IMG/VR virus record: IMGVR_UViG_3300036804_000066
Span: 1 to 38,742 of that record
Reading direction: 5' to 3' (one strand)
Source of the DNA: a virus
DNA: 38,742 nt
Part shown: piece by piece, positions 7,242 to 26,954 of the stretch
How positions within the stretch are numbered: the stretch's first letter is position 1
How the letters are laid out: each line of letters opens with the position of its first letter
Notes under the pieces: model-generated
Databases searched by the model: none
Told to the model about the DNA's origin: nothing
Seen by the model: the letters and a program-made list of their open reading frames with translations, nothing else
Made by a program: the position numbers and the translations under genes

Positions 7242-7346
7242 ATGTATCCGATTATCCCGTTCATCATCCCGGTCATTCACTTCGGCTTCAACTGGCTGAT
7301 CTCGTTCATGCAGTCAGACAACGGCCTGTTCTGGAACTTCATGTAA
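7242..7346 (+). CDS. Small hydrophobic membrane peptide (34 aa)
   Basis: A 34-residue peptide, MYPIIPFIIPVIHFGFNWLI at the N-terminus, with an almost wholly hydrophobic, Pro- and aromatic-rich sequence that can span a membrane once. AAGGAAGGAGG precedes the ATG by ten bases, a very strong ribosome site for so short a gene. There is no charged tail typical of a holin. A membrane-acting accessory peptide (for example in superinfection exclusion) is possible but unproven. Confidence 0.6.
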   Translation: MYPIIPFIIPVIHFGFNWLISFMQSDNGLFWNFM

Positions 7347-25656: not shown

Positions 25657-26100
25657 ATGGCTAAGACCAGCGGACTCGGCGGCGTGGTTGGCGTGTCGAC
25701 AGCAGCTGTCGGCATCGGAACTCCGAACGACATCTCAGTAGACGTCACGAACTGGAGCTTCACGACACCTCGTGCAACCCAGGACGTTACCGGCGTCAAC
25801 AAGTTTGCGAACGAGCGCATCCTGGCTCTCGCTGACTTCACCATCACCATGAACGGCGCATTCGATCCTGCGGCGAACCTAGAGCACGCCGTGTTCTCGA
25901 CGGTACCGTCGTCGACAGCACCGAGGACGTGTCTCGTCTGCCCGATCAGCAACGGGTCTACGGTGACGGTGCCGGTGTCGCCGTACTTCCAGGTGAACGT
26001 GATCCTGACCGACTATCAGATCACACGAGACAATACCGGCGCTATCACGTATCAGGTGCCGGGCAGTATCTATGACGGCAACAACGTTCAGTGGTTCTGA
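25657..26100 (+). CDS. Major tail tube protein (probable, 147 aa)
   Basis: A 147-residue protein that begins MAKTSGLGGVVGVSTAAVGI and contains ISVDVTNWSFTTPRA, VNKFANERILALADFTITMN and YQVNVILTDYQITRDNTGA-like strands. It directly precedes the assembly chaperone, where the main tube protein normally lies. Compared with the 388-residue relative at 24001 it lacks the beta insertions. The hexameric stack forms the tail tube. Its 3' end overlaps the opposite-strand gene 26088-26213 by 13 bases. Confidence 0.75.
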   Translation: MAKTSGLGGVVGVSTAAVGIGTPNDISVDVTNWSFTTPRATQDVTGVNKFANERILALADFTITMNGAFDPAANLEHAVFSTVPSSTAPRTCLVCPISNGSTVTVPVSPYFQVNVILTDYQITRDNTGAITYQVPGSIYDGNNVQWF

Positions 26101-26213
26101 CGACGACGACGCCGAAGGTACTGAATACCAAGCGTTATCAATGCGCCCGGTACTACAAAAAATACTGCTAGTATAGCGGTTCCGATCAAGATGTGGAATA
26201 GTTCTAGCAACAT
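26088..26213 (-). CDS. Antisense small membrane protein with poly-Arg tail (41 aa), moron-like
   Basis: A 41-codon gene runs against the late operon. On the minus strand, ATG 26213 has AGGAGG six bases upstream, better than most late genes. The product is a short N-terminus (MLLELFH), a hydrophobic helix (ILIGTAILAVFFVVPGALIT, residues 8-27) and a tail with five consecutive Arg (residues 34-38) ending QNH. This is a single-span, Arg-anchored membrane protein. A TATACT box lies upstream (26238-26243). It ends inside the tail tube gene. Its location and own promoter suggest a moron, for example a superinfection-exclusion protein; that role is a guess. Confidence 0.7.
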   Translation of the reverse strand: MLLELFHILIGTAILAVFFVVPGALITLGIQYLRRRRRQNH

Positions 26214-26237
26214 GCCAGCCTCCTAGGTTTAGGGCCA

Positions 26238-26264
26238 AGTATACCTTATGCCAAGGGATCACAA
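26238..26264 (-). promoter_or_regulatory. Candidate promoter for the antisense gene
   Basis: On the minus strand TATACT (26238-26243) is the same -10 box as at 913-918. The best -35 is TTGTGA (26259-26264) at 15 bases, or TTTGTG at 16, so it is weak there. The transcription start would be near 26231, about 18 bases before the ATG, leaving room for AGGAGG. Confidence 0.35.
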
Positions 26265-26283
26265 ACATAGAAAGGGGAAGGCA

Positions 26284-26805
26284 ATGGGATTTCGTCCAGA
26301 GCCAACCGTATACAGCCTCGTCTTTGGAGAGGACACGCCGCTACACGGGCTTCATGTGCGAGCTTCAGCCTGCTCGGTGAAGGAGTACAACTCGATCCTT
26401 AAGGCAGCAGTGGGCACTGAGTCTGAGTGCATTATCTGCGAAGGCGACAGGGAGATCTTCGATCCTGTGAAGGACGAAAAGGTCGAATGCCCGGCTTGCC
26501 GAGGCAAGGGCGTCATTCGAGGCGGTATCAACGCACAGACTCTCGAGGATAACGACACGATCCTGGACCTCTTCGCAAACCACCTCCTCTCGTGGGATCT
26601 AGAAGACCTTGCCGGGCAGGCGGTTCCTTGCTCGCGAGAAGGGATTGACAGCCAGGAGCGTGGCTTGGTGGCGCTGGTTATCCAGCAATGGCAGGCAGCC
26701 CTGGTGTCTGTCCCAAAAAGCTCGAAGACGCCATCTACGACTGGGTCGACTTCGGAGGAGAAGTCACTCAATCTGGGGAGTATATCTCAAAGCCCCCCGA
26801 GCTAG
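26284..26805 (+). CDS. Tail assembly chaperone, short form (gpG-like, 173 aa)
   Basis: A 173-residue protein from ATG 26284 (GGGGAAGG upstream; an in-frame start at 26248 is not used). It precedes the tape measure in the usual order and shares its 5' part with the frameshift product below. Its middle has CIIC (C49, C52) and CPACRGKG (C69, C72), a DnaJ- or zinc-ribbon-like pair not usual in assembly chaperones. The C-terminal part after the slippery site is Ser/Thr-rich. It stops at 26803-26805. Confidence 0.75.
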   Translation: MGFRPEPTVYSLVFGEDTPLHGLHVRASACSVKEYNSILKAAVGTESECIICEGDREIFDPVKDEKVECPACRGKGVIRGGINAQTLEDNDTILDLFANHLLSWDLEDLAGQAVPCSREGIDSQERGLVALVIQQWQAALVSVPKSSKTPSTTGSTSEEKSLNLGSISQSPPS

Positions 26806-26954
26806 AAGAGGCGGAAATCGTTATAGGTCTCTGCGATAGATTTCATTGTCTGCCTAGTCAGATACTGGATGAAAGTGCAGAGGTGATCAGAATGCTCAAG
26901 ATCGTAGCACTGACTCAACCTGAAGGACCGGAAGGACCAGACGATGGCTATTAG
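26284..26954 (+). CDS. Tail assembly chaperone, -1 frameshift form (gpGT-like, ~223 aa)
   Basis: The 5' frame from 26284 is open to 26805. A second frame, shifted by -1 (26688-26954), follows it. CCCAAAA at 26712-26718 sits in phase as C CCA AAA, the classical -1 slippery heptamer. After slipping, translation reads KLEDAIYDWVDFGGEV onward to the stop at 26952-26954, giving about 223 residues. Phage lambda gpG/gpGT and its relatives use the same arrangement to make two chaperones that wrap the tape measure in a fixed ratio. The longer form is the one that recruits the tail tube protein. Confidence 0.8.
26712..26718 (+). other. Programmed -1 frameshift site CCCAAAA
   Basis: Codons CCA (26713) and AAA (26716) are preceded by C26712, giving X XXY YYZ with X = C and Y = Z = A. 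Both tRNAs can re-pair after slipping to CCC and AAA. Position and frame change match the G/GT signal of siphovirus chaperones. Confidence 0.75.

What the first reader, a model, noticed from the sequence alone, without database searches (positions are those of the whole stretch)
26088..26264. Opposite-strand membrane gene inside the tail operon (moron-like)
Between the tail tube and chaperone genes, a 41-codon minus-strand frame has a perfect AGGAGG, a TATACT box upstream, one hydrophobic helix and a five-Arg tail. Its product would be made independently of the late operon, possibly in infected or lysogenic cells. It overlaps the tube gene 3' end by 13 bases, so it could also act as an antisense transcript.
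Basis: partly seen in the sequence, partly recalled or inferred. Interest (0 to 1): 0.75.

Follow-up and report, generated by a model that had tools for sequence, protein, structure and literature searches.

The report
Reverse-strand membrane-peptide gene in tail operon
Between two tail genes of an uncultured soil-type phage sits a tiny extra gene that runs the opposite way, appears to have its own switch and encodes a 41-residue membrane peptide; related phages use the same spot as a plug-in site for other small cell-envelope proteins, probably to alter or protect the infected cell.

Summary
In detail: minus-strand ORF 26088-26213 (41 aa, one strong transmembrane helix, RRRRR tail), AGGAGG 5 nt before ATG, GGTATACTT at 26237-26245. 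It is unlikely to be chance: 8 of 20,000 shuffles of the region give a comparable ORF. It fills a 183-nt, low-GC gap between the tail-tube gene and the putative chaperone gene. In 184 relatives with both genes, 160 have a gap of 105 nt or less; 24 carry inserts. Ten inserts, including this one, encode small membrane, lipo- or secreted proteins; two others are also minus-strand genes convergent with the tube gene. One of those (L007, an unrelated 77-aa protein) has the same GGTATACTT, with TATACT exactly 24 nt before ATG as here; the other (L031) belongs to a conserved phage membrane family. I therefore read it as a real, separately promoted moron-like envelope gene, most likely a superinfection-exclusion or envelope modifier acting in infected cells. 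Expression in lysogens is unsupported: no integrase or recombinase was found in the window or in seven relatives of 55-95 kb. The peptide has no detectable homologue, so its function is inferred. Antisense control remains possible. In passing I found a covarying RNA pseudoknot at this junction in about 16 relatives.

The parts
26088..26213 (-). 41-aa single-TM, Arg5-tailed peptide gene (ATG start, TGA stop)
   Evidence: unique minus-strand SD-led ORF, hydropathy 2.63, rare in shuffles; codon usage within the range of the phage's genes but not decisive
26219..26224 (-). Shine-Dalgarno AGGAGG, 5 nt from ATG
   Evidence: sequence
26237..26245 (-). GGTATACTT, putative -10 (TATACT 26243-26238), 24 nt from ATG
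   Evidence: the same 9-mer at the same spacing precedes the unrelated minus-strand gene in L007; weak -35
26101..26283 (.). insert: 183-nt tube-to-chaperone gap, GC 47.5% versus 58.8% and 57.2% in the flanking genes
   Evidence: 160 of 184 relatives have a gap of 105 nt or less
26088..26100 (.). 13-nt convergent overlap with the 3' end of the tube gene
   Evidence: sequence; L007's gene likewise reaches the tube stop
25657..26100 (+). tail tube (major tail protein) gene, left flank
   Evidence: phrog_10528 E 1.7e-6; viral and genomic relatives
26284..26805 (+). putative tail assembly chaperone gene, right flank (start MGFRPEP, not the ATG at 26248)
   Evidence: relatives begin at the same MGF motif; no family hit passes its cut-off

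Best explanation
The ORF is a real, self-contained accessory ('moron-like') gene inserted between the tail-tube and chaperone genes. SHOWN from sequence: an insert in an otherwise tight junction, a -10-like GGTATACTT plus AGGAGG plus ATG cassette facing against the operon, and a single-helix peptide. INFERRED: the host RNA polymerase reads it from its own short-leader promoter independently of the late operon, so the peptide appears early or throughout infection. It inserts in the cytoplasmic membrane N-out/C-in (the Arg5 tail stays inside by the positive-inside rule). By changing the envelope or interacting with an incoming phage's injection apparatus it excludes superinfecting phages or otherwise conditions the infected cell. 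The junction is a recurrent slot for such envelope-targeted cargo in this phage group; the minus orientation uncouples the cargo from late transcription.
For: ORF/SD/TM combination far above chance. Insert absent from 160 of 184 relatives. Same slot carries minus-strand L007 5426-5659 (short N-terminal hydrophobic segment) and L031 2501-2713, whose product belongs to a conserved phage membrane family (16 viral homologues elsewhere, 60 phage records, some annotated 'membrane protein', phrog_2697), plus plus-strand TM, lipoprotein or secreted proteins in L162, L167, L025, L024, L149, L156, L004. Envelope proteins are 10 of 20 identified inserts here versus 1 of 22 at the junction on the other side of the tube gene (Fisher p 0.001). 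GGTATACTT lies at identical distance from ATG in the window and L007, with no other notable similarity between the inserts; an identical 9-mer at equal offset occurs in 0.18% of random start pairs. Precedents: JBD26 tab, a minus-strand gene with its own promoter inside the late operon that defends against phages (PMC10884400); STMMW_20121, antisense to prophage lytic genes with its own promoter (PMC7067206); HK97 gp15, TP-J34 Ltp and Tuc2009 Sie, membrane proteins that block injection (PMC10883804).
Against: No homologue of the 41-aa peptide in phages, viral contigs or families, so no purifying selection can be shown. -35 is poor. No minus-strand terminator nearby. L031 lacks the GGTATACTT motif. 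The envelope classification is post hoc by hydropathy and lipobox, and junctions are not phylogenetically independent. Exclusion is one function among several for a small TM peptide. No lysogeny genes were found.
Confidence: 0.6

Rival explanations
1. The conserved function is the convergent promoter: the minus transcript runs into the tube gene and, as antisense RNA or by polymerase collision, tunes tube versus chaperone expression; the peptide is secondary.
For: Promoter motif and convergent orientation are shared with L007 while the encoded proteins are unrelated. Other relatives have attenuator-like structures at the same junction: an intrinsic-terminator-like hairpin + T-run in L068, L178, L184, L199, L273, L287, L065, and an RNA pseudoknot in about 16. 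An antisense RNA to late genes mediates exclusion in phage BTP1 (PMC7067206).
Against: Both genes keep a strong SD, an ATG and a hydrophobic segment, which an RNA-only role does not need; overlap with the tube gene is only 13 nt here and 4 nt in L007; neither strand folds better than shuffles (z 0.50 and 0.17).
Confidence: 0.15
2. A chance ORF in non-coding spacer DNA, for example the remains of a decayed insert.
For: 41 codons, no homologue, weak -35; an ORF of 35 aa or more alone arises in half of shuffles; L155 and L230 show inserts without a clear gene.
Against: Joint SD + TM + ORF p about 4e-4; unique in window and relatives; the shared promoter/ATG spacing in L007.
Confidence: 0.12
3. 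A lysis-related small membrane protein (holin or antiholin type) or host-inhibiting membrane peptide, not an exclusion factor.
For: One TM helix with a charged C-terminus resembles some small holins (own knowledge); a very weak tblastn hit (E 10) to an annotated holin.
Against: No family hit to holins; not next to a recognisable lysis gene; opposite strand to the late operon, so not timed with lysis.
Confidence: 0.13

Closest known systems
Tab of Pseudomonas phage JBD26 (PMC10884400)
   Same: Small accessory gene on the minus strand inside the late operon, own promoter, absent from relatives
   Different: Tab is soluble, sits between the terminase genes, blocks tail assembly and comes with an anti-Tab gene; here a TM peptide, other junction, no partner seen
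HK97 gp15 moron (described in PMC10883804; original paper not held)
   Same: Small inner-membrane protein of a long-tailed phage; position among tail genes is from own knowledge
   Different: No sequence similarity detected; different host group; temperate phage; exclusion proven there, not here
Lipoprotein exclusion factors of the Ltp type (Streptococcus phage TP-J34, PMC3952083)
   Same: Phage-borne envelope proteins; lipobox-like proteins occupy this same slot in L024, L149, L156
   Different: The window's product is a bare TM peptide without a lipobox
phrog_2697 / 'NQHILHLLLTVFTCGLWAPVW' actinophage membrane family
   Same: Occupies the same slot on the same strand in relative L031
   Different: The window peptide is not a member (no match)

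Membership tests
Moron (broad sense: extra gene present in some phages between genes adjacent in relatives) | Flanking genes adjacent in relatives, insert absent | tested here: met
   160 of 184 junctions have a gap of 105 nt or less; window 183 nt
Moron (broad sense: extra gene present in some phages between genes adjacent in relatives) | Base composition differs from flanks | tested here: met
   47.5% GC versus 58.8% and 57.2% in flanking genes
Moron (strict transcription-unit sense) | Own promoter | tested here: inconclusive
   TATACT shared with L007 at equal spacing but no good -35
Moron (strict transcription-unit sense) | Own factor-independent terminator | tested here: not met
   No minus-strand terminator-like site near 26088; hence filed as moron-like only
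Moron (prophage-expressed sense) | Temperate phage, expressed in the lysogen | tested here: inconclusive
   No integrase or recombinase in window or seven relatives of 55-95 kb; records may be fragments; expression not testable here
HK97 gp15 / other known superinfection-exclusion membrane proteins | Sequence homology to a known exclusion family | tested here: not met
   No Pfam or PHROG match, no phage protein match
HK97 gp15 / other known superinfection-exclusion membrane proteins | Small membrane protein | tested here: met
   Hydropathy 2.63 over 19 residues with an Arg5 tail
HK97 gp15 / other known superinfection-exclusion membrane proteins | Blocks infection by other phages | not testable with these tools
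   needs expression and challenge
Holin | Homology to a holin family and proximity to lysis genes | tested here: not met
   no endolysin recognised among the window genes scanned

The most novel reading that the evidence does not exclude
The tube-to-chaperone junction in this large group of actinophage-like soil phages is a dedicated plug-in slot for envelope-targeted exclusion proteins. One version is a reverse-strand cassette (GGTATACTT-24-ATG) into which unrelated small membrane genes are exchanged, so virulent phages would express exclusion factors early from inside a late operon.
Probability: 0.3. Interest if true: 0.72.

Novelty: new member of a known kind. Interest (0 to 1): 0.5.

Why it matters
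Short reverse-strand genes are often missed by gene callers. If this slot is real, it gives a simple rule for finding a reservoir of small phage envelope proteins (look between the tail tube and chaperone genes) in uncultured phages, and a testable set of candidate exclusion factors, including in phages that show no sign of lysogeny.

Tried and rejected
DNA and protein searches with the insert or peptide found no relative; one pattern scan was wasted because I left out an isoleucine. The blastn hit to P1-like plasmids covers 30 nt of GACGACGAC-type sequence at E 0.6 and was discarded as chance. Codon usage was tried as coding evidence but is uninformative for 41 codons. RNA folding of either strand of the insert gave nothing. 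The sigma-70 scan's listed promoter at 26197-26170 lies inside the ORF and was not used. The weak Pfam hits (MWFE, YnaM) are below cut-off and reflect a generic TM helix. No structure prediction was run, because a 41-aa single helix would tell nothing. L159's apparent 197-nt gap is an artefact of a chaperone frame that breaks early.

Full report
WHAT IS THERE. The window is a 38,742-base virus record with a Prim-Pol/AAA protein, terminase, portal, Clp protease and capsid genes, then tail genes that run off the right end. The peptide MLLELFHILIGTAILAVFFVVPGALITLGIQYLRRRRRQNH has one strongly hydrophobic segment (19-residue mean 2.63) and an Arg5 tail, predicting N-out/C-in by the positive-inside rule (inference).

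MORE THAN CHANCE? An ORF of 35 aa or more in this stretch is unremarkable (half of shuffles), but ORF + SD + TM occurs in 8 of 20,000. It is the only minus-strand AGGAGG-led ORF of 20 aa or more in the window and the most hydrophobic among four SD-led minus-strand candidates in 1.46 Mb (window and relatives). Codon usage is compatible with a gene but not decisive.

THE JUNCTION IN RELATIVES. Four tube-based scans gave 189 distinct tube genes, 184 with the following chaperone-position gene. 160 gaps are 105 nt or less; 24 are larger. Inserts: minus-strand genes in the window, L007 (77 aa, short N-terminal hydrophobic segment) and L031 (70 aa); plus-strand TM, lipoprotein or secreted products in L162, L167, L025, L024, L149, L156, L004; a weaker case in L033; zinc-finger, HNH-like genes in L064 and L076/L280; and a tail-type gene in L038, L087, L258, L261, L266, L090 (also L031). 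L031's product is a real conserved family found in 16 other viral contigs away from tube genes and in 60 phage records. At the junction on the other side of the tube gene, 22 of 164 loci have inserts, mostly tail paralogues and HNH-type endonucleases, with one clear membrane protein. Envelope proteins are thus concentrated at the downstream junction (10 of 20 versus 1 of 22, p 0.001); the classification is mine and post hoc, and the loci are not independent.

A SHARED PROMOTER MODULE. The upstream sequences of the window gene and the L007 gene share GGTATACTT, with TATACT ending exactly 24 nt before ATG in both; the inserts are otherwise not notably similar. A -10/SD/ATG/ORF pattern scan over all loci gives five hits, of which these are two; the same 9-mer occurs elsewhere only in L006, in another region. 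Random pairs of start sites share a 9-mer at equal offset in 0.18% of cases. The -35 is poor in both, so the promoter is likely but unproven.

HOW IT LIKELY WORKS. Independent transcription against the late operon would let the peptide be made before or without late transcription. A TM peptide in a slot that relatives fill with lipoproteins and other membrane proteins points to the envelope; superinfection exclusion is the best-known job of such phage genes (HK97 gp15, Ltp, Sie2009: PMC10883804; PMC3952083). A minus-strand, self-promoted defence gene within a late operon is documented for JBD26 tab (PMC10884400), and an accessory locus antisense to lytic genes with its own promoter for a Salmonella prophage (PMC7067206). 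I found no integrase or recombinase in the window or relatives of 55-95 kb, so action during lytic infection is the more economical reading; fragments cannot exclude lysogeny.

LIMITS. No homologue of the peptide exists in the collections searched, so selection on the frame cannot be measured. A terminator is not seen. The chaperone label is positional. Antisense or interference control is a live rival: other relatives place a terminator-like hairpin or a pseudoknot in this very gap.

SIDE FINDING. In 16 of 189 loci (mean 0.3 in shuffled junctions, 4 of 894 control windows) the gap holds a GC-rich hairpin whose loop pairs with a motif just 3' of it. On 13 aligned elements, 92% of cells pair (shuffled 72%), and 15 of 18 pairs show compensatory changes (36 cells versus 10 by shuffling). 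The set was chosen for loop-tail complementarity, so the stem's covariation is the more independent part. There was no Rfam match in the seven loci searched. The window lacks it.

Noticed in passing
L006:4362-4422, L010:5437-5499, L015:826-884, L019:5439-5497, L025:5439-5499, L033:5471-5529, L034:3523-3584, L039:3373-3433, L129:5361-5416, L140:953-1017, L149:4425-4488, L156:4413-4475, L162:4241-4301, L167:811-876 (+ strand): Covarying H-type RNA pseudoknot directly after the tail-tube stop and before the next SD (loop CCCGGT type pairs with a motif, often doubled, ACCGGGnACCGGG); strong compensatory changes, no Rfam match in the loci tested. In six of these the cargo gene starts right after it. 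Function unknown: possibly sets tube versus downstream expression.
   Followed up: partly
gaps after the tube gene in L068, L178, L184, L199, L273, L287, L065: Intrinsic-terminator-like hairpin plus T-run (e.g. CAGTCCATCGCAGGTGCGGTGGGCTTTTTT) between tube and chaperone genes, suggesting attenuation after the highly expressed tube gene.
   Followed up: no
L024:5420-5689, L149:4501-4731, L156:4486-4752, L025:5503-5778: Small lipoprotein or secreted proteins with a similar Cys pattern (AC...A...P..C.GL...L in three of them) in the same slot; candidate phage lipoprotein exclusion factors.
   Followed up: no
L045, L071, L097, L123, L157, L181, L184, L185 upstream of the tube gene; L064, L076, L280 downstream: HNH/zinc-finger homing-endonuclease-like genes repeatedly inserted on either side of the tube gene, some on the minus strand (L045, L157, L185); they may drive cargo exchange at these sites.
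   Followed up: partly
window 7242-7346 (+): Another tiny AGGAGG-led ORF (34 aa, MYPIIPFIIPVIHFGFNWLISFMQSDNGLFWNFM) that looks membrane-embedded, in the early region.
   Followed up: no
window 26688-26954 (+): The chaperone-position gene overlaps a downstream frame, with CCCAAAAAG near 26713, a possible programmed frameshift site.
   Followed up: no
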